Shown piece by piece: positions 1 to 24,480 of a DNA stretch of 24,480 bases. A program made the position numbers and the translations under genes. The notes under the pieces were generated by a model. That model did not search any database. It had not been told where the DNA came from and saw only the letters and a program-made list of their open reading frames with translations. Position 1 is the stretch's first letter. Each line of letters begins with the position of its first letter. This stretch comes from a virus: the IMG/VR virus record IMGVR_UViG_3300018080_000576, positions 1-24,480 of that record, one strand, 5' to 3'.

Positions 1-378
1 GCTCTCGGCGAGCAGCACCCGGACTACGCAACGAGCCTCAACAACCTCGCCGGGCTCTATCGGGCCATGGGGCGCCACACCGAGGCCGAGCCGCTCTACA
101 AGCAGGCCATGGAAATCAAACGCACCGCTCTCGGCGAGCAGCACCCGGGTTTCGCAGTGAGCCTCAACAACCTCGCCCTGCTCTACAACGACATGGGGCG
201 CCACACCGACGCCGAGCCGCTCTACAAGCAGGCCATGGCAATCTGCCGAACTGCCCTCGGCGAGCAGCACCCGCACTATGCCGTCGTACTCAGAGGCCTC
301 GCCGGGCTCTACGACAAAATGGGCCGCGATGCCGACGCCGCTGAGCTGAAGAGGCAGCTCGACTCGCTGTCCGAGTAG
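1..378 (+). CDS. TPR (kinesin light chain-type) repeat protein, 3' end only
   Basis: This is the C-terminal 125 residues of a longer protein; the reading frame is open at base 1, so the true start lies outside the window. It consists of three 42-residue tetratricopeptide units, each opening with ALGEQHP and continuing with S/V-L-NNLA-LY, then MGR, EAEPLY and QAM. The last unit is degenerate and ends in SLSE. TPR arrays of this type form helical solenoids that bind other proteins, and nothing here tells the partner. It is the only plus-strand gene supported in the window and converges on the phage operon, so it is probably host chromosome rather than phage. Its function beyond scaffolding cannot be called. 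The family call is firm, the host origin is inference. Confidence 0.85.
   Translation, partial: ALGEQHPDYATSLNNLAGLYRAMGRHTEAEPLYKQAMEIKRTALGEQHPGFAVSLNNLALLYNDMGRHTDAEPLYKQAMAICRTALGEQHPHYAVVLRGLAGLYDKMGRDADAAELKRQLDSLSE
1..378 (+). repeat. Three tandem 126-bp units encoding TPRs
   Basis: Units lie at 1-126, 127-252 and 253-378. Units 1 and 2 are very similar at DNA level, including long identical stretches around the GCCGAGCCG and AACAACCTCGCC segments. Unit 3 has diverged, mainly in its second half. Near-identity at synonymous positions suggests recent unit duplication or gene conversion. More units probably continue beyond the left edge. Confidence 0.85.
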
Positions 379-397: not shown

Positions 398-443
398 CCT
401 ACCAGCGCCCGGCCGGACACCGCGGCGCCCGCAGCCGCGTCAG
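398..443. repeat. 46-bp direct repeat, left copy
   Basis: This copy matches 1653-1698 at 43 of 46 positions without gaps. Read on the minus strand it encodes LTRLRAPRCPAGRW followed by TAG, the same ending as the 199-aa protein at 1654-2253 apart from one residue (P for V). Sequence further upstream on that strand does not continue the resemblance, so this is an isolated copy of a gene 3' end. It contains a 6-bp GC stem (CGCGGC/GCCGCG, 421-439) without a T tract. The two copies bracket a two-gene accessory cassette. Confidence 0.85.
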
Positions 444-504
444 ACCCGACCCGCGGCTCGCGTCATCCCTGTGAGGGGGGTGCGCGGGCTTGTTGAACGA
501 TGTG

Positions 505-747
505 CTACCGAGACGCACACAGGTTCCCATCTTCGACCGAAGCCCCGGTCAACGCAGCCAGCGCAGAGCCGCGGCGATCGGCGTCCGCCAACACCCTAAC
601 GGCGATGTCGCACGCCTCCTTTGCCGCTTCCCAGCCGGCTCGGTAGTATTCTCCCTTGCCAGCACACGGGTCCTCCTTGTCGGCTGCATAATAGTCCAGG
701 TAGTCCTCTAAACTTCGGAAAACCACAGGGTCATTGTGCGTACTCAT
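505..747 (-). CDS. Hypothetical protein, 80 aa
   Basis: I do not recognise this small, acidic, probably soluble protein. It starts MSTHNDPVVF, has an aromatic segment (YLDYYAADKED, residues 17-27) and then an Ala-rich helical middle (WEAAKEACDIAVRVLADADRR). ATG at 747 is preceded by GAAGG nine bases upstream, a usable ribosome binding site. It lies 113 bp downstream of the HEPN-motif gene on the same strand, so the two could be co-transcribed. Together they are the only genes between the two 46-bp repeats. Being next to a putative HEPN ribonuclease makes a partner or antitoxin role conceivable, but no known antitoxin fold can be named. The gene could also be unrelated cargo. Confidence 0.55.
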   Translation of the reverse strand: MSTHNDPVVFRSLEDYLDYYAADKEDPCAGKGEYYRAGWEAAKEACDIAVRVLADADRRGSALAALTGASVEDGNLCASR

Positions 748-860
748 GAGTGCCAGCCTTCACATGGTAGTTGCTAAAGAGGCGCGGGCTTATTTTGAGG
801 GCGACCAGGGGAAAGGCGGTCATGCATTCATCCGGCAGGAGGGGGCATACGTTCCAGGTT
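748..860. other. Intergenic gap inside the accessory cassette
   Basis: These 113 bp separate the 80-aa gene from the HEPN-motif gene and look less GC-rich than the flanking phage genes. I see no convincing promoter pair, no strong hairpin with a T tract, and no small ORF with a good ribosome binding site. Confidence 0.4.
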
Positions 861-1556
861 CTAGCTTTCTGGATTCTTCATTCGTGCCAATATCGGCTCG
901 TGAATGCACTTGTTCCACAGTTTGGCGAACACGTCCAGACACCACGGCAGAAATGACACGGTTGCTCGCAGAATGCCGTCCCCCACCTGCTGCTCGTCCT
1001 CCGACAAGTCAGTATCTACCGCAACGTACCAGACCCGCCTGCCCCCGTGCACGATCTGGTTTCGCCACCCCCGCAGTCGCGTGTAATTGGCCCAGAAGTC
1101 CTCCGCCCCTTTTTCGCCGGGGGCTCGCGTCAGCATCTTCTTGGCGCTGGCATCGAAGACGGTCTTCCATACCTTGTTCCTGCCACTCCTGTCCCGGGCG
1201 TTCTCCTTGAGGTACACGTGCGCCTGTTCGTCTCGATATCGGCATCCTTCGGGCATCGCACCGAGAATCGGCTCCTCTCGCACCCAATCAAGATGCAGCA
1301 ACCCGTCGTGGAGAAGCTGGTATTCTATCGCTTCACAGAAGGCCACGGCGACCACGAGCGCCAGCTCCGGCCTCTTGTGCTTAACGCAGAACGCGTGCTC
1401 GGCCCACAGTTCCTGCGGGGCACACTCAAAAGGCCACGTGCTGCAGCAGCCAGAATCGGTGCCGCATGCGGGGCATGGGCCACCGGGATTGACGTCATCG
1501 CCTACGTGCTTGCACTTGCCGCAAAGGCCGTACCTGGGGAACGAAGACACATCCAT
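861..1556 (-). CDS. Zinc-ribbon protein with HEPN motif (putative ribonuclease)
   Basis: The 231-aa protein (from ATG 1556) opens with a zinc ribbon: C12-x2-C15 and C28-x2-C31 in LCGKCKHVG and GPCPACG. A helical segment (about residues 63-85, ELALVVAVAFCEAIEYQLL) follows. A second helical region carries RGWRNQIVHGG (residues 162-172), which contains R165-N166-x3-H170. R-N-x3-H is the canonical catalytic motif of HEPN domains, found in ribonucleases of toxin-antitoxin, abortive-infection and CRISPR systems. The start at 1556 is chosen for GAGG nine bases upstream and a natural N-terminus just before the ribbon. ATGs at 1616 and 1622 and a TTG at 1637 also stay in frame. A TTGACA at 1637-1632 could be a -35 box, but the matching -10 is poor. 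Catalysis and a defence role are inference. It could be a non-catalytic HEPN protein. Confidence 0.65.
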   Translation of the reverse strand: MDVSSFPRYGLCGKCKHVGDDVNPGGPCPACGTDSGCCSTWPFECAPQELWAEHAFCVKHKRPELALVVAVAFCEAIEYQLLHDGLLHLDWVREEPILGAMPEGCRYRDEQAHVYLKENARDRSGRNKVWKTVFDASAKKMLTRAPGEKGAEDFWANYTRLRGWRNQIVHGGRRVWYVAVDTDLSEDEQQVGDGILRATVSFLPWCLDVFAKLWNKCIHEPILARMKNPES

Positions 1557-1652
1557 GGTTCGAGCCTCACAGCTTGCGACCGCAGTCCTGTCCGCCACTC
1601 TGCTTCGCAGTTTCATTCGCATTCGCTCGTTTGTCAAGGTGCGACCCCTCCA

Positions 1653-1698
1653 CCTACCAGCGCCCGGCCGGGCACCGCACCGCCCGCAGCCGCGTCAG
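1653..1698. repeat. 46-bp direct repeat, right copy (3' end of the last phage gene)
   Basis: This copy matches 398-443 at 43 of 46 positions. It covers the final 14 codons and stop of the 199-aa gene at 1654-2253 and includes the 12-bp palindrome GCCCGGCCGGGC, which is imperfect in the left copy. Two of the three differences change one codon (Val to Pro) and the third is silent. A repeat made from a gene 3' end plus stop is the geometry seen where mobile DNA inserts at gene ends. Confidence 0.85.
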
Positions 1699-2253
1699 GT
1701 GCTTGAGCGCCGCGAACGGCCACCAGCGGGCTTTCGGGCATCGACACCGCCTGGCCGTGCAGTAATCCGCCGCCCCGGGCCGGCCGAAGGACTCGGGCGC
1801 ACCGGCCGCCGGGCGCGGGACGCCGTCAGCCGTTGTGATGCGCAGCGTGCACCCGGCGCAGATCGCCCGGCGCCGCTCGCGGGTGGCCTTGCCGACCCAG
1901 CCCAGCGCGTGCGTCCCCACGAACGACGTGACGGCCGCGTAGGCCATGACGGCGGCGTGCAGCAGCGTGATGATCGCCGCGATGTCGAGTCGATCACCGC
2001 CGGCGAGCGATCGCTGAAACCGGTCGACGAGGGACGTCGGCAATCCGGCGAGCATGACGGCCGCTCGCGTTGTCCGGCGGTAGTGGGCACGCTGCTCGTC
2101 GGTCACCGCCTCGACGAGCGCGATCTGGTCGCGCTGGTACCGCTCGACCGCCGCGTCGATGATCTTCGGTTCCGTCGGCCGCTCGCCCGGCTGCCGTCGC
2201 CCGGATGCTGTCGACTGCTGTTCCATGTGCTGCTTGATTTCGTCGGTTGTCAT
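1654..2253 (-). CDS. Phage distal protein with hydrophobic segment and C-terminal Cys motif
   Basis: This 199-aa protein is the last gene of the phage operon. ATG at 2253 overlaps the upstream stop (ATGA), the coupling used throughout the operon; an in-frame ATG at 2460 would overlap about 210 bp of the previous gene and is less likely. Residues 1-60 are polar and helical. Residues 89-119 (LDIAAIITLLHAAVMAYAAV onward) are hydrophobic enough for one membrane or buried helix. The C-terminus holds C132-x2-C135, C165, C170, C172 and C194 and ends in RCPAGRW, suggesting a small metal-binding domain. From memory, similar Cys clusters ending in CP-x-G-K/R-W occur in phage-associated proteins, but I cannot name the family. 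The role is unknown. Confidence 0.7.
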   Translation of the reverse strand: MTTDEIKQHMEQQSTASGRRQPGERPTEPKIIDAAVERYQRDQIALVEAVTDEQRAHYRRTTRAAVMLAGLPTSLVDRFQRSLAGGDRLDIAAIITLLHAAVMAYAAVTSFVGTHALGWVGKATRERRRAICAGCTLRITTADGVPRPAAGAPESFGRPGAADYCTARRCRCPKARWWPFAALKHLTRLRAVRCPAGRW

Positions 2254-3882: not shown

Positions 3883-4416
3883 TCAAGTCTCCCCTCCGCA
3901 CAGCGGCGGCGTGTTTGTGAACATCGCCTCGATCCATATCGGGGCGGGCAGCGCGACGCCGATGGCTACCATGCCGTCCTCGACGAGTTCTGTGGGGTCA
4001 TTCGTCCCCTGCCGGAAAAAGTAGCCGCGTGACACGACCGGCGGTTGTGCGTAGTCCGGGATCGTGGCGAACCACGGCACAAGGAAACCCTCGGCGTCGC
4101 GGGTGAAGCCGAAGCCGTGAAGATGGCGACCGGCCTCCTTGCCCGCATCCTCTCTCGCAAAGTACTCCTGCGGCCGCACGGGTTGCAGCGTGACGGGTGT
4201 CACCACGGCGGGATTCCACTCCACGCCGTCGAGCCACCCGCCGTCACACGGGTAGGGCTCGTCACAAGGCGCGTCTTCCAACGGCAGACGACCGAGCCCG
4301 GCGACAACGTCAACAACCAGATCGTACGTCCACTGCATGGTCGGCGGGACGTACGTCGGCGACTGTACGTTGAGCTTGTTCACGTGCTCGTGGTGACTGA
4401 TGTCGATCGTCGGCAT
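3883..4416 (-). CDS. Phage distal tail protein, 177 aa, unknown
   Basis: I do not recognise the family. ATG at 4416 lies one base after the previous stop; the in-frame ATG at 4536 would overlap the upstream gene by 119 bp, so the internal start is preferred although its ribosome binding site is weak. The protein begins MPTIDISHHEHVNKL. It has a Pro/Cys patch around residues 48-58 (DAPCDEPYPCDGGW) and a predicted beta-rich second half with many aromatic residues (EYFARED, RGYFFRQG), ending TPPLCGGET. It has no signal peptide or membrane helix. Its place between the coiled-coil protein and the Cys-rich 543-aa protein suggests a virion component at the tail tip. Confidence 0.65.
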   Translation of the reverse strand: MPTIDISHHEHVNKLNVQSPTYVPPTMQWTYDLVVDVVAGLGRLPLEDAPCDEPYPCDGGWLDGVEWNPAVVTPVTLQPVRPQEYFAREDAGKEAGRHLHGFGFTRDAEGFLVPWFATIPDYAQPPVVSRGYFFRQGTNDPTELVEDGMVAIGVALPAPIWIEAMFTNTPPLCGGET

Positions 4417-4417
4417 A

Positions 4418-4882
4418 TCAGGCGTCCGGGTGATTCGCGTTGAACGGAAAGACCGCTGCTTGCTGAGGCATACCGTTACGCGTGTACAGCGTCTGGATCG
4501 GGTACCAAAGCAACGCATACCGGTTTCCGTCGGCATGCGTCAGGATCGGCAGGTACATCGCCGGAGCCCGGATCGCAAGCTGATAGTGCCGTGCCAGTGT
4601 CCCCGGCCACACACGCACGGGCACCGGCTCATCGCCGTCGTCGACCATGTCACCGGTCCACGGGCTGCCCGTCGTCTTGGCAAGCTGGGCGAGGATGTGC
4701 GTCTCATCCGTGTAGGTGTCCCCGTAGTCCGGCGGTCGGACGCGGCCGAACTCAATAGCGGCCGTCGCCGACGGCGGGATGTCCACGGGATACGTCGGCT
4801 GAGGCGCCGCCGCTCGGCGAAGGTTCGCTACCTCTTCCCGCAATTCCGCCAGTTGTCGTGCAACCTCTTGGGTCGTGCTCAT
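4418..4882 (-). CDS. Phage distal tail protein with N-terminal coiled coil, 154 aa
   Basis: ATG at 4882 overlaps the upstream stop (ATGA), so I take it over the in-frame ATG at 5056 that would run inside the previous gene. Residues 5-27 (VARQLAELREEVANLRR) have a heptad-like pattern of a short coiled coil, which could drive oligomerisation. An Ala/Pro linker and a 110-residue globular part follow, with VRPPDYGDTYTDETHILAQL and a Tyr-rich stretch (RHYQLAIRAPAMYLPIL). The layout of short coiled coil then small beta-rich domain is common in fibre-attachment and tail-tip proteins, but no family is recognised. Confidence 0.65.
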   Translation of the reverse strand: MSTTQEVARQLAELREEVANLRRAAAPQPTYPVDIPPSATAAIEFGRVRPPDYGDTYTDETHILAQLAKTTGSPWTGDMVDDGDEPVPVRVWPGTLARHYQLAIRAPAMYLPILTHADGNRYALLWYPIQTLYTRNGMPQQAAVFPFNANHPDA

Positions 4883-7065
4883 AGGGATATCCGTCCGGGA
4901 TCTATGTGCTTGGTGCGAATGGTGGTCGTAAACCCTTGCTTGCCGAAGCGCCAGGTGCGCGAGGCGACCGGCGCCAGGATCCATTGGACCCGCTGATGTT
5001 GCAGGATACCGTCGATCATGTGGCCGGGCGGGTACTCCGGCCGTATACCGTGCCAAGTCACCGTCATGTGCGTTCGCGGCCGCCTGGCGTACGCCTTCAA
5101 CACGGCAGCGGCGAACCGCAGGCGATCGGTGTCGTCGCGAACAGCCGGGTCGTCGTAGTGATGCCGCGGTCGACCGTCGTCCTGTAGCCCCACCACAGTA
5201 TTGGGGTCGACGAGCCAGTAGTGAGCGCCGGAGATGCGGCGTACGAGCGTACGGCTTGTCGACCCGGTTTGAGGCAGCGACACGACGACCCGCGGCCTGA
5301 CGTCAAGCTCGAACGCCAGGGTGACAACCATCTGATTGAAGTCGAACCGGGGTGGTTGGTCGATGACGTCTTCGTCGATATCGTTGATCGCCAGGATGTG
5401 ATGCGGCGTGCCGCGCATCTCGAAGGTGACGTCTCCCTCGCCGGGAACCAGGCTGATTCCCGCAGGATAGGGCTCGCCGTCACCGTCGACGCCCGGACGG
5501 TGAGCCAAGACGAAACGCCACGGATTCACCGGCACGCCCTCTTCATCCAGCACCAACAACAGTGCGAAGGGACGGGCGAACTGCTGCTCCGTCGATTCGG
5601 AGACGATGTCGCCGAACTCCTTGATGGGCAGCGTTGTCATCATGCGCCGCCGCTCGTCCATGTACTCGCCGGGCGCATGTCGGTCGCGTCGCCCATCGGC
5701 GTCAAACTTCGGCACCAGCGGGATCGAGCCGTCGGTCTCCCAGCCGTCGCGGACGCGGAATGATCGGAAGAGGCGATCGAAGACGCTCGACCGCCGATCC
5801 TCCTCTTCGGCCGCCTCGTACGGACCGGCAAGCGACCATGACCACGCCGGATCGATCCTCGGCATGTTCGGCAGCCGGGACGAGAAATCACCGTTGATAC
5901 GCGTCGTGAACGACGCACAAGTCTGCACCTTTTCGCCCTCGACGATGATCTCGCTGTAGGTCTCGGTGTTGTCGATACCCACGTCTGCACCGCGAACGTT
6001 CGAATCGTTGTCCAGACTCAGAAAGGACCACACCGGGTTGGACGGGAACTTCGCGCCTGCTACGTGGGTGATACTATGCGACAGCGAGTAGCAGTAGATG
6101 GACACCGCGCCGTCCGGGAAGCCGTTCGTGCCGGTACTCCACTCGATGCGTGCCGACAGCATGGCGCTCGGCGCGATCAGTTGCCGCAGAACCTCCCACA
6201 CGGAACGGTTGCCTTGCGGGATGACGGACACCCGAGCGTTCAGATAGTTCAGCACGGCAGCCGGGCCGCTCAAATGGAATGACGGGTCACCCCCTGCGTC
6301 GGACGTTCGATCCAACGACCGCATCAGCAGATAGTCGATCGCCTGGCGCCACGTCCATGTGTATCGAGCCTCTCGCGCCTCGTCGATGTCGGTCCCGAAG
6401 ACGTACGTTTGGCCGGCCCCTGTGCCCGTGGCGTGCTTCTCCGCCGAGCGGTTGCCGATCAGTTCACCGCGCGACCCGCCGCCGTTGAAATCCTCGCCCG
6501 ACGACTCGACAAACCGGACCGCAGACTCGTCCTGGTGCACGGTGTACGTCCCGCCCAACCGACGGCGAGCCAACAGGTACTCCAGCCCGAACGCCGTGAG
6601 GTGCTGGTTGCCGTAGCTCGCCATGTTGCCGTCTGCGTTCGTTCGTGCTCCGCCCTGTCTGGTCTGTTCCGCCGGCAGGTAGCCGCACCACAGGGTGTAC
6701 GGGTCCTGCCCTTCTGTGTGGATCCGCACGCAGATGAAGTGATCGAGTTGTTCGATTGCCCGCACGACGGCGAACGCGGCGACGTCTTGGTGTTTCATGT
6801 CACCGTAGGCATAGCGGAACTTCGCCTTGCTCATGTCCGGCATGGCGCCTTCCATGACATCGACGACCTCGAGGTAGGGCACGTAGGTCCAAGACCCGTC
6901 CCACCGCTCTTTGACCCACACCGTAGCGTACTGCCGCGGCTCATCGGGCGCGGCAGCAATGCCGCCGGACGGAGCCGACAGCGTGACAGTTGCCCGGTGG
7001 CTTACCGGCGGCGCAACGTAGTCAACCGAGCAGACGCCGTCACCGTGGACGCTGTGCGTCGTCAT
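4879..7065 (-). CDS. Probable tail hub / baseplate-like protein, 728 aa
   Basis: ATG at 7065 overlaps the preceding stop (ATGA) and has AAGGAG seven bases upstream, so the longer form from 7122 is rejected. The protein opens MTTHSVHGDGVCSVDYV, a single copy of the GDG-x-C-x-V motif repeated in the gene before it. Residues 40-200 are beta-rich with WTYVPYLEVVDV and the segment ending FGLEYLLARRRLGGTY. A middle part (about 270-400) contains VIPQGNRSVWEVLRQLIAPS and IIVEGEKVQTCASFT. The C-terminus is beta-rich and ends KHIDPGRISL. Size, position after the tape measure block and the pattern of split beta domains resemble the hub proteins that form the tail tip. That assignment is by position and texture; no catalytic motif is visible. 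Confidence 0.65.
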   Translation of the reverse strand: MTTHSVHGDGVCSVDYVAPPVSHRATVTLSAPSGGIAAAPDEPRQYATVWVKERWDGSWTYVPYLEVVDVMEGAMPDMSKAKFRYAYGDMKHQDVAAFAVVRAIEQLDHFICVRIHTEGQDPYTLWCGYLPAEQTRQGGARTNADGNMASYGNQHLTAFGLEYLLARRRLGGTYTVHQDESAVRFVESSGEDFNGGGSRGELIGNRSAEKHATGTGAGQTYVFGTDIDEAREARYTWTWRQAIDYLLMRSLDRTSDAGGDPSFHLSGPAAVLNYLNARVSVIPQGNRSVWEVLRQLIAPSAMLSARIEWSTGTNGFPDGAVSIYCYSLSHSITHVAGAKFPSNPVWSFLSLDNDSNVRGADVGIDNTETYSEIIVEGEKVQTCASFTTRINGDFSSRLPNMPRIDPAWSWSLAGPYEAAEEEDRRSSVFDRLFRSFRVRDGWETDGSIPLVPKFDADGRRDRHAPGEYMDERRRMMTTLPIKEFGDIVSESTEQQFARPFALLLVLDEEGVPVNPWRFVLAHRPGVDGDGEPYPAGISLVPGEGDVTFEMRGTPHHILAINDIDEDVIDQPPRFDFNQMVVTLAFELDVRPRVVVSLPQTGSTSRTLVRRISGAHYWLVDPNTVVGLQDDGRPRHHYDDPAVRDDTDRLRFAAAVLKAYARRPRTHMTVTWHGIRPEYPPGHMIDGILQHQRVQWILAPVASRTWRFGKQGFTTTIRTKHIDPGRISL

Positions 7066-19745: not shown

Positions 19746-21273
19746 CGTCTCCCTCATTCGCCGGAGCAGTCGTAGCCGGTACCTTGTTGATCAGTTCGCG
19801 CCAATCGAGCCGAGCCTCGGGATTTGTCTTGTTGATATCTGCCGCCTCGGCGATCGCGGACCTGGCAGCCACACCCTGGTCGCGGACAATCTCCTCAACC
19901 ACTTCCGCCCAGTCGGCGCCGCGCTCGCCGTGAAGTCTCGACGGGCTCGTCAAGTTTTCACCAAGCCGGAGCGCATCCGTCTTGGCGTCCTTCTCCGGGT
20001 CGACGTACGGCCAAAGCGGCGGCCGCCAAACGACGGATTGTGCGTTCTCGCCAACGGCCTCGAGTCGGCTGCGCAACGCCGGATCGTGCGAGGTTTCCTG
20101 ACGCACCCACCACCGCCACGCCGGACGGTGGAATCGCCGGATCATCTGATCCTGCAACTGCCGAAACCCAAGCCGAGCTTGGTCGACCGCCCCGCGATAG
20201 CCGGAATAGGTCGTGTCACTCACATCCATGAACGCAATGATGAACGGCAGCCCCAAATTCACCGAGACCATCGTCCACATCATCTGAACATGCTTGAAGA
20301 ACTCGTCGTTGGGCACATTCGGCGAGAAGCCGTGGAGCTTCTCGCCCGGTGCCCCAAGAACCTCAAGACCCGGTGCGATGCCTTCGATGATGCGCGTCGA
20401 GCCGTCGTACTGCGTCTCAACCGTCCGCGGCCCCGTCTGCAAATCGCCACCGCCGCGGAAGGTCGGTTCCCGTTCGCGGAAAACAGCGAAACACGAGACG
20501 ATCTGCGACTGAACCAACTTGGCGAAGTTGATGTCCTCGAACATACCCAACAGGTCGAAGATCGGCGCCAGTGCCGTTACGCCTCGGGACTGACTGATTC
20601 GCTTGGGCTTGTATACATGGAAGATCTGACGCTCTCCGCCGGCGTCCCGTGTCGGATACGGCTTGGTGTCGGAGACGCGAACCAGTGGTCTGAGCGGATC
20701 GATGTCTTCCGCCGTCAGCCAATACTCCAGACGCCGACGGTTGGCGTTCATCAGGATCCCATGGACGACGTTGCGCTTGGTATTTCGCGGCGTCCGCAAC
20801 CGATGCCCCTCGACCAGCTCCAAAGCACCGCACTTGGAAGCCAACGCCACCACGTCGCCGTCAACCAAGACATGCCGCAGAACCAGCGATTCCATCTCCG
20901 GAAAGGTCAGCTCACCGGCCACATCGCACCGATCCGCGTCGTTCGCCCAGGCCGTCCATCGTTTGGCCAACTCAGCGTCGAGTTCCGGATCCCCTGTCTG
21001 CGGATCCGGCCGGAAACCGCCCTGCATGATATTGATGACGGCTCGGTCGATCAGAGCGCCGACGATCACGTCGTTGCGATCCATGTCGCGCGCCAGCTCG
21101 ATCAGCTTGAGGTAGTCGCCCTCGTTGCGGTAGTGGTAGTCTGCCCCGCCGCCCAGCGGCGCCAGGCCCGTGCGCCGACGCCGGAACCGCGAGTCCTTCG
21201 TGGCCGCATAGTCGGCACGGAGATCGTCAAACCGTTCAGCGAGCGTCTCAGGGTTGTTCCGTCGCCCGGCCAT
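19711..21273 (-). CDS. Portal protein (lambda gpB-like)
   Basis: The portal forms the dodecameric ring at one vertex through which DNA is packaged. ATG at 21273 shares its A with the gpW-like stop (TGATG), so I use it rather than the ATG at 21342 that would overlap 70 bases. The 520-aa product has lambda-portal hallmarks: an N-terminal FDDLRADYAATKDSRFRR; YLKLIELARDMDRNDVIVGA and ALIDRAVINIMQGGFRPDPQ; QIFHVYKPKRISQSRGVTAL around residues 230-250, typical of phage portals. Later come IIAFMDVSDTTYSGYRGAVD and RFHRPAWRWWVRQ. Length is close to lambda gpB (533 aa). Downstream it overlaps the S49 protease gene. Confidence 0.9.
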   Translation of the reverse strand: MAGRRNNPETLAERFDDLRADYAATKDSRFRRRRTGLAPLGGGADYHYRNEGDYLKLIELARDMDRNDVIVGALIDRAVINIMQGGFRPDPQTGDPELDAELAKRWTAWANDADRCDVAGELTFPEMESLVLRHVLVDGDVVALASKCGALELVEGHRLRTPRNTKRNVVHGILMNANRRRLEYWLTAEDIDPLRPLVRVSDTKPYPTRDAGGERQIFHVYKPKRISQSRGVTALAPIFDLLGMFEDINFAKLVQSQIVSCFAVFREREPTFRGGGDLQTGPRTVETQYDGSTRIIEGIAPGLEVLGAPGEKLHGFSPNVPNDEFFKHVQMMWTMVSVNLGLPFIIAFMDVSDTTYSGYRGAVDQARLGFRQLQDQMIRRFHRPAWRWWVRQETSHDPALRSRLEAVGENAQSVVWRPPLWPYVDPEKDAKTDALRLGENLTSPSRLHGERGADWAEVVEEIVRDQGVAARSAIAEAADINKTNPEARLDWRELINKVPATTAPANEGDDGEDTDKQRAA

Positions 21274-21560
21274 CAGTCGCGGAACCCCCGAAATGAAGCG
21301 TACTTGGCCCCGCCGGCCGTACCGCCGCCGACCGCCGACCACTGCTGAGCGGCCTCGAGCTCCTTGGCAATCAGGCTCAGATCAAGCTCGATCTCCGCCC
21401 CGCCGTGCGACACGCGCCGCGGCTTGCGAAGCAAGAGCAACCGGCAAGCCGTGACGAATCCGCGAGCCTTCTCTGCGGATCCGTCCTCGGCGTACGACGC
21501 GTTGTCCGCGTAGGCCGCGACGATCTCTTCGAGCGTTGATGTAGATCCGAGCGTTGCCAT
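21273..21560 (-). CDS. gpW-like head-tail connector, 95 aa
   Basis: The protein lies between terminase and portal, where lambda has W. ATG at 21560 lacks a clear Shine-Dalgarno, so expression may depend on the upstream region. After an N-terminal arm, residues 35-75 show CRLLLLRKPRRVSHGGAEIE and LDLSLIAKELEAAQQW. This mirrors the gpW layout from memory: helix, short basic beta hairpin (…KRV..VQKDGRRVEF), then a helix beginning near a D/S-L-x-x. gpW joins the connector before the tail docks. Similarity is by pattern only. The C-terminal Gly-rich GGGTAGGAKYASFRGF is typical of gpW-family tails. The 121-bp gap before it contains the octamer array. Confidence 0.65.
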   Translation of the reverse strand: MATLGSTSTLEEIVAAYADNASYAEDGSAEKARGFVTACRLLLLRKPRRVSHGGAEIELDLSLIAKELEAAQQWSAVGGGTAGGAKYASFRGFRD

Positions 21561-21597
21561 GACCCGAGTTTGAGCAACGCCGGATCAGGCGTCTCGA

Positions 21598-21677
21598 AAA
21601 ATACCGAAATACCGAAATACCATTCCGGCGAAATACCGAAATACCAAAATACCATTTCGGCGAAATACCAAAATACC
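21598..21677 (-). repeat. Array of ten phased octamers (GGTATTTY with two GCCGRAAT)
   Basis: Read 5' to 3' on the minus strand, eighty bases divide exactly into ten octamers. Eight are GGTATTTT or GGTATTTC. The third and seventh are GCCGAAAT and GCCGGAAT. The order is T, C, X, T, C, C, X, C, C, T (X = GCCGRAAT). Each X after a GGTATTTC creates a small hairpin (ATTTC-GCC-GAAAT; the second has one G-U). It fills most of the 121-bp gap between the 78-aa gene and gpW, in a much more AT-rich composition than its neighbours. It could bind a protein cooperatively, or be a simple sequence expansion. Confidence 0.9.
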
Positions 21678-21681
21678 GCGG

Positions 21682-21918
21682 CTACTCTGTTGCCGCTGCC
21701 ACGGCCTCAAGGAGCCACTTGACCGCATCTGCGTTGGTCTGCACGTGGCGCCCGCCCGTCAGCGTCGCCCCGCGAGCGTCCAAGCCGTCCCGCAGCGCTC
21801 GAAGCGTCAAACCGTGAGCCTGGGCCAGCTGCACATTGAGATGCCGCTGGATGTACTGATGCCCCATCGGTGCGCCGAGCGGCACGACAATCGTCCTCGT
21901 CTCTTCCTTTTTTGCCAT
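21682..21918 (-). CDS. Small hypothetical phage protein, 78 aa
   Basis: ATG at 21918 is three bases past the terminase stop and has GAGGTGA just upstream, so expression is likely. The sequence begins MAKKEETRTIVVPLGAPMGH and continues with helical segments YIQRHLNVQLAQAHGLTLRA and LRDGLDARGATLTGGRHVQT before NADAVKWLLEAVAAATE. A short basic beta strand followed by two helices could be a small nucleic-acid-binding or adaptor fold, but no helix-turn-helix or ribbon-helix-helix signature is convincing. Position between terminase and the octamer array suggests a link to packaging, though this is only location. Confidence 0.6.
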   Translation of the reverse strand: MAKKEETRTIVVPLGAPMGHQYIQRHLNVQLAQAHGLTLRALRDGLDARGATLTGGRHVQTNADAVKWLLEAVAAATE

Positions 21919-21921
21919 ATG

Positions 21922-23862
21922 TCACCTCTGTGTGATCAAGAACGGACGGCCGTCCGGCATCCGTATGCCGCCGCCCGTCTCGCGTTGTGGTTCCGGTCTC
22001 GGCGGACGCGGCAACTCCGGCTGCAAGTAGAAGGCCCCGGAGAAGTCGGCCAGCGCCACGGCGTACACCTCGCAGTCCAAGTAGTGATTCGCTGCCCCTA
22101 CGTGCTTCAAATCCCACACCGCCGCCATACGCTTGCTGCGGTTGACGGTCACGAGCTTCATCACGTGATGCTCGCTGCAGAATTGCTCGCAGTAGTCGTC
22201 CGTGGCGTCCCGATGCAGAGCCCAATACTCCGGATCCCCCGGTGCGGCGCGAGCGTGCCGGTAGACGGTCTCCTTGTACTGGTCCGTGTTGACGTGGTGC
22301 AGCAGGAGCGAGTACTTGTCCAGCGTGCCGTCAGGCATGTAATCGATCCGTGAAGGCTGCACCCCGTGCGACTTGCCGCCGCCTTTGACGGCATAGGCGC
22401 CGGGCTGGTGGGCACGAACGAAGGCATACACCTCCTGCGTGCGGTAGCCGCTGTCTACAGCCATGCGGGAAACATGCAGAATGTCGCCGTTCAAGCGCCG
22501 GTACGGCTTCATGACGATCTTGTAGACGTCCTCCAGCGTGCCCGTCACGCCCTCATGGATCAGCCAAGACTTCTTGTCGTAGCCCCATCCCCGGATGACG
22601 TAGTAGCAGCAAGTCGCCTGGACATCGACGCCGGCGTACATGACAAGACACTCGTCGGGCACGACACCGCGAGGCAGTGCCCCAAGACGCTTCTCCCGGT
22701 ACAATTCGATGTCAACATCCTCGCTGGTCTCCTTAAACGTCTCCCCCAACCAGGAGTTGGTGAATACCCGCAGCTTCTCCCGATCATGCCCCGCACGCAG
22801 GAACGCCGCCGCAATCTCCGAGAACGTTCGCCATGGGCTGTAGGCACTCCAGATGTGGAAACCGACGCGCCGCGTTACCGGCGGTTCGCCGTCGAGTTTC
22901 GGCCGCCATTGCTCACGCCCGACGCCGGCCGCCTGCTTCACAATCGCCGCGTCATCGACCGGCAGTCTCTCGGCAACCGTCTGCGCTTCAGGCACCCACA
23001 CCCCACGCGCGACCATCCATAGCCGATCGATGTCGAAGATCTCCTGCTCGCAGTGAGCACACGCGTACCACGCCAACTTACCTGCCTCGATCCGTTCCGG
23101 ATCACGCACGTCCTCCGGGATCTTGATCCGCGAGAACGTCAGGTCCTGATACCCACCGCAGTGGGGACATGGAACGTGGTACCGCCGCCGGTCGCTCGCC
23201 TCCCACTCCTTCCAGGCCGCGGCATCCGGGTGCGTCGGCGTCGTGGCCGACATTACCTTCCCCCGATACCCGTACGTCGTCACACGCTCGGCCGCGACGG
23301 ACAGGTGGTTGCCCAGCGAACCGGCCTCGCTCTCGCAGTTGTCCAACTCGTCAAAGAACACATGCCGGCAGGTTCTCCGGATCATCGTGCGCGGCGCCGC
23401 TGCCCAAGCCATCCAAATCGTTCGCCCACCTCGGAGGTACAGAGCTCTCGCCGTCGCAAATCCGTCGCGAACAATGTGCTTGGCGGCCTCCGGGCACGAC
23501 TCGATCATCTTCTTCAGCCGCCCGGTCGCTTCATCTTTGGCGTCTTGCTCGGTCGGCAACACGTACAGCGACGGACCCGGGGCCCCGGCGATGGCGTACA
23601 ACAGACAGTTGTTCATCGCTTCGGAACCGCCGACACGGGCACTCTTGACGAACGTGATCCGAGACACGCTCGGGTCGCAGAATGCGTCCATCACCCCCCG
23701 AATATACGGTGTACGCGCCGATCGATACCGCCCCGGCTCCGAAGCGTCGTCGTCAATGATCCGATGCTTGTCGGCCCACTCGGTAACGGTGAGTACCGGG
23801 GCCGGGGCAAAGCAATGCGCCAGCCCCGCAAGGCACGACTTGTCCGGTCGCCTACGTGCCAT
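21922..23862 (-). CDS. Terminase large subunit (GpA family)
   Basis: The packaging motor and DNA-cutting enzyme, 646 aa, similar in size to lambda gpA (641). ATG at 23862 overlaps the end of the small-subunit gene by 11 bases. The ATPase shows an adenine-binding/Walker A-type segment, VKSARVGGSE (residues 72-81), which matches the deviant Walker A of lambda gpA, and Walker B HVFFDELD (167-174). A zinc-finger-like insertion (CPHCGGYQDLTF, then CAHCEQE) is typical of the GpA family. The nuclease domain begins near LVMYAGVDVQATCCYYVIRG and includes MAVDSGYRTQEVYAF. It works with the small subunit and portal to fill heads. This is one of the firmest calls in the window. Confidence 0.93.
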   Translation of the reverse strand: MARRRPDKSCLAGLAHCFAPAPVLTVTEWADKHRIIDDDASEPGRYRSARTPYIRGVMDAFCDPSVSRITFVKSARVGGSEAMNNCLLYAIAGAPGPSLYVLPTEQDAKDEATGRLKKMIESCPEAAKHIVRDGFATARALYLRGGRTIWMAWAAAPRTMIRRTCRHVFFDELDNCESEAGSLGNHLSVAAERVTTYGYRGKVMSATTPTHPDAAAWKEWEASDRRRYHVPCPHCGGYQDLTFSRIKIPEDVRDPERIEAGKLAWYACAHCEQEIFDIDRLWMVARGVWVPEAQTVAERLPVDDAAIVKQAAGVGREQWRPKLDGEPPVTRRVGFHIWSAYSPWRTFSEIAAAFLRAGHDREKLRVFTNSWLGETFKETSEDVDIELYREKRLGALPRGVVPDECLVMYAGVDVQATCCYYVIRGWGYDKKSWLIHEGVTGTLEDVYKIVMKPYRRLNGDILHVSRMAVDSGYRTQEVYAFVRAHQPGAYAVKGGGKSHGVQPSRIDYMPDGTLDKYSLLLHHVNTDQYKETVYRHARAAPGDPEYWALHRDATDDYCEQFCSEHHVMKLVTVNRSKRMAAVWDLKHVGAANHYLDCEVYAVALADFSGAFYLQPELPRPPRPEPQRETGGGIRMPDGRPFLITQR

Positions 23863-24424
23863 CAGACTTCCGGGGCCGACCGGGGCCGCGCCTTCTAATC
23901 TTCGTCTTTGCGGCCAATAGGGCGTCCTGGCGCAGGCACTCCGCTCTCACGATCGCTCGGTGCTGCTCGCATCGGTCACGCAAATACTCCTCCTCTTCGG
24001 CCGGGTCCATGCCGGCCGTCGCCATCGGTACGCCGGCACATACGGCCTCGAGCGTACGATTGAGTATCTCGCACAGGTCGTCACGTTCCCGGTCGCGGAT
24101 CTCCCGTGAGACGTACTTGCTCCGCTCAACCTCATTGGCGTGCTCGAGCTTGGAGGCTTGCGCAATCCTGAGCCGCCGGTTGGCCTCGGCCAACGTGCAG
24201 TCGTCGTCGATCGCAACCGGCCCGCGCTTGAGCGTTTCACGCCGCCATTCCAGCACCTGGGCGAGGTCAAACTTGGCGCGCCCGAACGGCCAATCCGCAC
24301 GCTTGATGTACTGGGCAACCGTCTGCCGACTCACCCCCAAAGCGGCCGCCAAGGCCGTCTGCGTGGGGATAATCTCCGTCGCATCACGTTTGGCGGAACG
24401 TCGTTTTGGCTTCTTGCCGGCCAC
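23852..24424 (-). CDS. Terminase small subunit (Nu1-like, helix-turn-helix)
   Basis: The small subunit recognises the phage DNA packaging site and hands it to the large subunit. The 190-aa frame starts at GTG 24424; no ATG or clear Shine-Dalgarno exists upstream before the in-frame stop near 24458, so GTG is the only reasonable start. Residues 18-50 (IPTQTALAAALGVSRQTVAQ, YIKRADWPF, then FDLAQVLEWRRETL) form a winged helix-turn-helix like lambda gpNu1. Residues 75-110 are charged and helical (ANRRLRIAQASKLEHANEVE), suitable for oligomerisation. The C-terminus is basic (KTKIRRRGPGRPRKSDGT) with an AT-hook-like GPGRPRK. It overlaps the large-subunit gene by 11 bases, as expected for a co-translated pair. 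Confidence 0.88.
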   Translation of the reverse strand: MAGKKPKRRSAKRDATEIIPTQTALAAALGVSRQTVAQYIKRADWPFGRAKFDLAQVLEWRRETLKRGPVAIDDDCTLAEANRRLRIAQASKLEHANEVERSKYVSREIRDRERDDLCEILNRTLEAVCAGVPMATAGMDPAEEEEYLRDRCEQHRAIVRAECLRQDALLAAKTKIRRRGPGRPRKSDGT

Positions 24425-24446
24425 GGATTGTCTGTAAATGCGACGT

Positions 24447-24466
24447 TTTGGGTAATATTAACCAAA
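24447..24466. promoter_or_regulatory. 20-bp near-perfect palindrome upstream of terminase (candidate operator)
   Basis: Nine of ten pairs match around the centre at 24456/24457, with arms TTTGG and CCAAA flanking GTAATATTAA. It is AT-rich in a GC-rich region and lies 22 bp upstream of the terminase small-subunit GTG. It could be an operator, a terminase-binding site, or include the -10 of the late promoter. The right edge of the window cuts off any further context. Confidence 0.45.
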
Positions 24467-24480
24467 GTGCGGGCGAAAGA

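What the first reader, a model, noticed from the sequence alone, without database searches (positions are those of the whole stretch)
398..1698. Putative HEPN ribonuclease cassette at a duplicated gene 3' end
Two non-structural genes lie between 46-bp direct repeats at the end of a phage tail operon. One has a zinc ribbon and the exact R-N-x3-H HEPN motif. Seen directly: motif, cysteines, repeats. Known: HEPN domains with this motif are often toxin or anti-phage ribonucleases, and prophages often carry defence cargo at operon ends. Inference: this is a moron or defence unit, with the 80-aa gene as a possible partner.
Basis: partly seen in the sequence, partly recalled or inferred. Interest (0 to 1): 0.7.

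Follow-up and report, generated by a model that had tools for sequence, protein, structure and literature searches.

The report
Phage accessory gene resembling HEPN ribonuclease
A phage from an uncultivated source carries, tucked between the end of its tail genes and a large immune-type gene, a small zinc-binding protein with the catalytic signature of RNA-cutting HEPN toxins; it is probably one more phage-borne infection-blocking RNase, but no relative was found and its fold could not be confirmed.

Summary
The described features are real. A 231-aa gene (864-1556, minus) has a CxxC...CxxC zinc-ribbon-like N-terminus and R165-N-x3-H170-G. An 80-aa gene (505-747, minus) follows. Both score as coding. 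A 46-bp stretch containing the last codons of the preceding gene recurs on the far side (1653-1698 and 398-443, 93.5% identical; 54 bp at 91%).

HEPN rests on the motif, a sub-threshold Pfam hit on the motif region, and a helix pattern from models too poor to use. No homologue was found in the phage, plasmid or IMG/VR searches or in about 1,790 genomes, so conservation of R165/H170 and of the gene pair is untestable. The 80-aa gene has no recognisable antitoxin or nucleotidyltransferase feature. 'Prophage' is unsupported: a second record overlaps the window at both ends, giving a closed ~44.2-kb genome with no integrase found and no host flank. The cut TPR gene belongs to the phage: an HNH/NB-ARC/TPR (STAND-type) protein convergent with the cassette. 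The phage also carries a pentapeptide-TIR gene.

Best reading: a phage accessory HEPN RNase working like Tha or phage-borne AbiF. If so, it is a new, orphan member of a known kind, not a new kind.

The parts
864..1556 (-). 231-aa zinc-ribbon plus putative HEPN protein (stop codon 861-863); TTG extension to 1637 looks non-coding
   Evidence: coding score, start choice; PF18735 at E 0.062 whole protein, 0.016 C-terminal part, below cut-off
1047..1064 (-). R165-N-Q-I-V-H170 motif (coordinates computed from the ATG at 1556)
1464..1523 (-). zinc-ribbon-like cysteines C12xxC15...C28xxC31 (C37/C38 lie just after)
   Evidence: sequence; no Pfam zinc-ribbon hit for this part
505..747 (-). 80-aa gene of unknown function, possible partner
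   Evidence: coding score 0.183 per codon; no relatives; no Pfam, PADLOC or NCBIfam family
1653..1698 (-). repeat copy A: 3' end and stop codon of the 196-aa gene 1654-2244
398..443 (-). repeat copy B: same 3' end without the rest of the gene, just past the 80-aa gene
1654..2244 (-). 196-aa gene with cysteine-rich C-terminus ending CPAGRW, last gene before the cassette
   Evidence: no family above cut-off
1..378 (+). 3' part of a phage-borne HNH/NB-ARC/TPR gene that continues at L009:1-1773 (minus) in the overlapping record; convergent with the cassette

Best explanation
The 864-1556 gene is a phage accessory gene encoding an HEPN-type, metal-independent RNase with an N-terminal zinc ribbon. 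By analogy with Tha and with phage-borne AbiF, it would sit inactive in the carrier cell. The zinc ribbon, or a bound partner, would sense a signal of infection by another phage. The dimeric HEPN domain would then use R165 and H170 to cut RNA and stop growth, which excludes the competitor. Shown here: the motif, the cysteines, coding status, position and repeats. Inferred: the HEPN fold, RNase activity, the trigger, the exclusion role, and arrival of the two genes as one insertion marked by the duplicated gene end.
For: Exact R-N-x3-H with N after R, as in experimentally supported phage HEPN proteins: Tha R265NSIMH270 (PMC11087260) and AbiFCd RNQCAH (PMC12373285). The only Pfam hit is an HEPN family and covers the motif region. 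The low-confidence helix pattern puts R165 at the end of one helix with a long helix after it, as described for HEPN in PMC3710099. Zinc ribbon plus HEPN fusions are known (PMC3710099). Neighbouring accessory genes are of immune type: HNH/NB-ARC/TPR and TIR-pentapeptide. Phage HEPN genes near the end of late operons have precedent (AbiF in or after the lysis module).
Against: No homologue anywhere searched, so no conservation test. PF18735 score 13.6 against cut-off 28.4. A profile built from cyanobacterial PF18735 members aligned only nine residues around the motif and did not beat shuffles. The Ex3[KR] motif common in HEPN helix 2 is absent. Structure models are unusable. No promoter-like site of its own was found, so it could be read through as a late gene, awkward for a toxin. 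No lysogeny gene was found, which weakens a role in protecting a lysogen.
Confidence: 0.5

Rival explanations
1. It is an HEPN-fold protein but serves the phage's own infection: expressed late with the tail operon, it cuts or binds host RNA (shut-off, translation control) rather than excluding other phages.
For: Same strand as the tail genes, directly after the last one, with no promoter- or terminator-like site between them; no integrase found in the closed phage genome.
Against: The cassette is not in the relative G002, whose tail-operon end holds a serine recombinase instead. The neighbouring STAND and TIR-type genes suggest exclusion functions.
Confidence: 0.2
2. The two genes are a toxin-antitoxin pair: HEPN toxin and 80-aa antitoxin, kept for stability of the phage or as an abortive-infection switch.
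For: Same strand, adjacent, both coding; HEPN proteins are common toxins; the small inhibitor gene of Tha is a precedent for a small partner.
Against: 113-bp gap between the genes; the 80-aa protein has no DNA-binding or nucleotidyltransferase family hit and no homologues, so co-occurrence cannot be tested.
Confidence: 0.12
3. The protein is not HEPN. It is an orphan zinc-binding phage protein in which R-N-x3-H arose by chance.
For: About 0.3 chance R-N-x3-H motifs are expected over the window; no significant family hit; poor models.
Against: The motif has the full local form (polar N, hydrophobic I/V, H-G) at a predicted helix end, and the only Pfam hit is an HEPN family.
Confidence: 0.18
4. 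On origin only (compatible with any of the functions above): the repeats do not mark a cassette insertion. They are the leftover of a tandem duplication or recombination of the 196-aa gene, and the two genes were already there or came separately.
For: Only the last ~46-54 bp are duplicated; there is no integrase, inverted repeat or target duplication of fixed size; the composition of the two genes is only slightly different (GC 0.60 against 0.62-0.67 for most late genes), and early genes overlap that range.
Against: A duplicated gene end exactly bracketing two non-core genes is what insertion by recombination at that gene end would leave.
Confidence: 0.4

Closest known systems
Tha-1/Tha-2 of Staphylococcus aureus prophages (PMC11087260)
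   Same: Phage-borne single HEPN protein, R-N-x3-H motif near the C-terminus, small neighbouring gene, non-core position
   Different: Tha is 301 aa with no recognised N-terminal domain and sits in the lysogeny region with an overlapping antisense inhibitor; here 231 aa with a zinc ribbon at the end of the tail operon, no antisense inhibitor shown, no lysogeny genes, no sequence relation demonstrated
Phage-borne AbiF / Abi_2 (PMC12373285)
   Same: HEPN RNase motif RNQCAH, toxic when expressed, located in or after late genes of phages
   Different: AbiF has a cognate structured RNA (Rfam RF03085); no abiF RNA match near this gene and no Abi_2 Pfam hit
HEPN_RiboL-PSP (PF18735)
   Same: Only Pfam hit; covers the R-N-x3-H-G region
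   Different: 13.6-15.6 bits against a cut-off of 28.4; only profile positions 143-170 of 191 matched; profile of cyanobacterial members does not recognise it
Zinc ribbon-HEPN fusions of the DUF4145 and related groups (PMC3710099, Table 1)
   Same: Architecture: zinc ribbon plus HEPN, including an example labelled Plim_2023 with zinc ribbon
   Different: No DUF4145 hit; the Plim_2023 example also has two transmembrane segments

Membership tests
HEPN superfamily | Rx4-6H motif with a polar residue (N, D or H) after R | tested here: met
   R165-N-Q-I-V-H170; definition from PMC3710099
HEPN superfamily | Four-helix fold with the motif at the end of helix 3 | tested here: inconclusive
   Models with mean pLDDT 36.6 and 38.4; the helix pattern of the first fits, the second does not
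HEPN superfamily | Conserved acidic residue, often Ex3[KR], in helix 2 (many but not all families) | tested here: not met
   Predicted helix 63-83 has E75 and E78 but no Ex3[KR] (sequence). Optional feature.
HEPN superfamily | R and H conserved in homologues | tested here: inconclusive
   No homologues found
HEPN superfamily | Metal-independent endoRNase activity, usually as a dimer | not testable with these tools
   Needs purified protein
HEPN_RiboL-PSP (PF18735) | Score above Pfam gathering cut-off 28.4 | tested here: not met
   13.6 bits whole protein, 15.6 bits best fragment
DUF4145 (PF13643) | Pfam profile match | tested here: not met
   No hit up to E 10
Tha system | HEPN protein encoded with an overlapping antisense inhibitor gene in the lysogeny region | tested here: not met
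   The 80-aa gene is on the same strand and does not overlap; the gene lies at the tail-operon end; no lysogeny genes found
AbiF / Abi_2 | Abi_2 profile match and abiF RNA motif | tested here: not met
   No Abi_2 hit; no RF03085 match
HEPN-MNT toxin-antitoxin | Adjacent nucleotidyltransferase antitoxin | tested here: not met
   80-aa neighbour has no nucleotidyltransferase hit
Prophage | Integrase or host flanks | tested here: not met
   Two overlapping records close into ~44.2 kb; no integrase among the ORFs examined. An unrecognised one is not excluded.

The most novel reading that the evidence does not exclude
A phage without recognisable integrase carries several exclusion genes of different kinds: a zinc-ribbon HEPN RNase, an HNH/NB-ARC/TPR sensor-effector and a TIR-pentapeptide protein. 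Its convergent late-operon end would be a cargo slot where genes are swapped by recombination between copies of a short conserved gene end. The zinc ribbon would be a new sensor or substrate-binding part for an HEPN RNase.
Probability: 0.12. Interest if true: 0.55.

Novelty: new member of a known kind. Interest (0 to 1): 0.32.

Why it matters
If correct, it adds an orphan zinc-ribbon HEPN protein to the small set of phage-borne HEPN exclusion factors, in a phage lineage with almost no sequenced relatives, beside two other immune-type genes. It would show such cargo in a phage with no sign of lysogeny, where who benefits is an open question. As it stands it is a lead, not a demonstrated system.

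Tried and rejected
Homologue searches of the 231/258-aa protein: exact-peptide scans of genome contigs and viral contigs, tblastn of phages and plasmids (best E 6-9, noise), about 1,790 genomes drawn from seven phyla chosen through terminase relatives. The one hit (L095) and the hit (L096, 38% over the zinc-ribbon stretch only, ORF without HEPN motif) are not relatives. Planctomycetota could not be reached as a centre, and these searches had no positive control.

PDB, PADLOC, NCBIfam, PHROGs: nothing for the HEPN protein.

Home-made profile from 30 cyanobacterial PF18735 loci: aligned only RNQIVHGGR, score below top shuffles.

AlphaFold2 on the whole protein and on residues 45-231 without homologues: pLDDT <40; I did not run fold searches because they would be meaningless.

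abiF-type RNA or structured antitoxin RNA in the gaps: Rfam empty apart from one chance match; gap sequences fold no better than shuffles.

Search for more copies of the repeat: none in the two records, none in IMG/VR.

Host-flank reading of the TPR gene: rejected because it continues in the overlapping phage record.

Host inference from the IS4 transposase: best plasmid hits only 45% identical, no host assigned.

Full report
What is there. On the minus strand, after the tail genes, lie a 196-aa gene (1654-2244), a 231-aa gene (stop at 861, ATG at 1556) and an 80-aa gene (505-747). Copies of a 46-bp sequence containing the end of the 196-aa gene lie at 1653-1698 and 398-443. Both copies read LTRLRA[VP]RCPAGRW-stop, so the duplicated piece is a protein-coding end; it extends to 54 bp at 91%. 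A codon model trained on 15 late genes scores both small genes as coding: 0.186 and 0.183 per codon, where in-frame windows average 0.234 and out-of-frame windows average -0.21 with a maximum of 0.190. The upstream TTG extension to 1637 scores as non-coding. The protein starts MDVSSFPRYGLCGKCKHVGDDVNPGGPCPACG, a zinc-ribbon-like pattern, and contains LRGWRNQIVHGG, where R165 and H170 match the HEPN Rx4-6H signature with N after R (definition in PMC3710099).

How strong is the HEPN call. R-N-x3-H is not very rare: 8 occurrences in 193,978 aa from 555 ORFs of other loci, 3 with a following G. About 0.3 and 0.1 are expected over this window's genes. Of the three R-N-x3-H-G cases, one is in a shadow ORF; the other two are in small proteins that look HEPN-like by eye but have no Pfam hit. 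Pfam gives one family for the protein, HEPN_RiboL-PSP (PF18735), at E 0.062 for the whole protein, 0.035 and 0.016 for C-terminal parts, always over the motif region and always below the cut-off. A profile built from cyanobacterial members of that family aligned only nine residues and was not better than shuffles. I put HEPN fold at about 0.8 on motif form and profile together, and anti-phage RNase function at about 0.5.

Relatives. None found: IMG/VR and GTDB peptide-pattern scans, phage and plasmid tblastn, and about 1,790 genomes in seven phylum samples. Apparent hits L095 and L096 are noise or zinc-ribbon only. The 80-aa gene has none either.

The genome around it. The window is a whole IMG/VR record of 24,480 bp. 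A second record, IMGVR_UViG_3300017991_003087 (24,570 bp), matches it at 100% over 4,693 bp at the terminase end and over 123 bp at the TPR end, in the orientation that closes a circle of about 44.2 kb, apart from unresolved TPR repeats. The TPR gene at window 1-378 is therefore not host sequence. Its other part encodes an HNH-like region (PF13391, E 3.7e-4, just under cut-off), NB-ARC and TPRs, a STAND-type architecture. The same phage carries a pentapeptide-TIR gene, a second pentapeptide gene, an IS4-type transposase, a primase-polymerase and a helicase with intein-like segments. No integrase was recognised among the ORFs examined. The nearest other relative with long sequence (G002, 43% terminase) has no cassette and has a resolvase at the end of its tail operon.

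Mechanism. The nearest functional models are Tha (S. aureus prophages; C-terminal HEPN, R265NSIMH270, RNase activated by tail proteins, inhibited by a small antisense-encoded protein; PMC11087260) and AbiF of C. difficile phages (RNQCAH, in the lysis module, restrained by an RNA; PMC12373285). This protein probably works like them: silent until a signal of another phage, then RNA cutting and growth arrest, with the zinc ribbon as the likely sensor or RNA-binding part. It is not a member of either system: no antisense inhibitor, no lysogeny region, no abiF RNA, no Abi_2 profile. The 80-aa gene could be an inhibitor but nothing in its sequence says so.

Origin. With one genome and no sister phage lacking the genes, insertion cannot be told from duplication and decay. 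Composition differs only slightly.

Verdict. Observation confirmed; interpretation partly supported; most likely an orphan, zinc-ribbon member of the known class of phage-borne HEPN proteins.

Noticed in passing
window 1-123 and 19788-24480; L009:1-123; L002:9383-14075: Two IMG/VR records overlap at both ends at 100% and close into one ~44.2-kb phage genome, broken at TPR tandem repeats.
   Followed up: yes
L009:1-1773 (minus) continuing into window 1-378: Phage-borne STAND-type gene: HNH-like N-terminus (PF13391 just under cut-off), NB-ARC, DUF7779, TPR; convergent with the tail operon.
   Followed up: partly
L002:7209-8261 (+): Pentapeptide repeats fused to a TIR domain (PF13676 E 1e-21, weaker ThsB_TIR match).
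   Followed up: partly
L002:827-3358 (+): Phage helicase interrupted by Hint/intein-splicing-like segments.
   Followed up: no
L009:2210-3181 and 3986-4558 (minus): ORFs ending in a shared hydrophobic C-terminus (ASAIGNNGLAIL[VI]VLLLGAGSY[LI]MRQRRA[AV]TA), resembling a PEP-CTERM/IPTL-type sorting tail on a phage.
   Followed up: no
L009:5215-5601 and 5589-6845 (+): Histidine-kinase ATPase fragment next to an ORF with receiver-like start, in a phage.
   Followed up: no
L008:4312-4794 (minus); L051:46-561 (+): Two other small proteins, one on a phage contig and one near a terminase gene, with R-N-x3-H-G and HEPN-like look but no Pfam family.
   Followed up: partly
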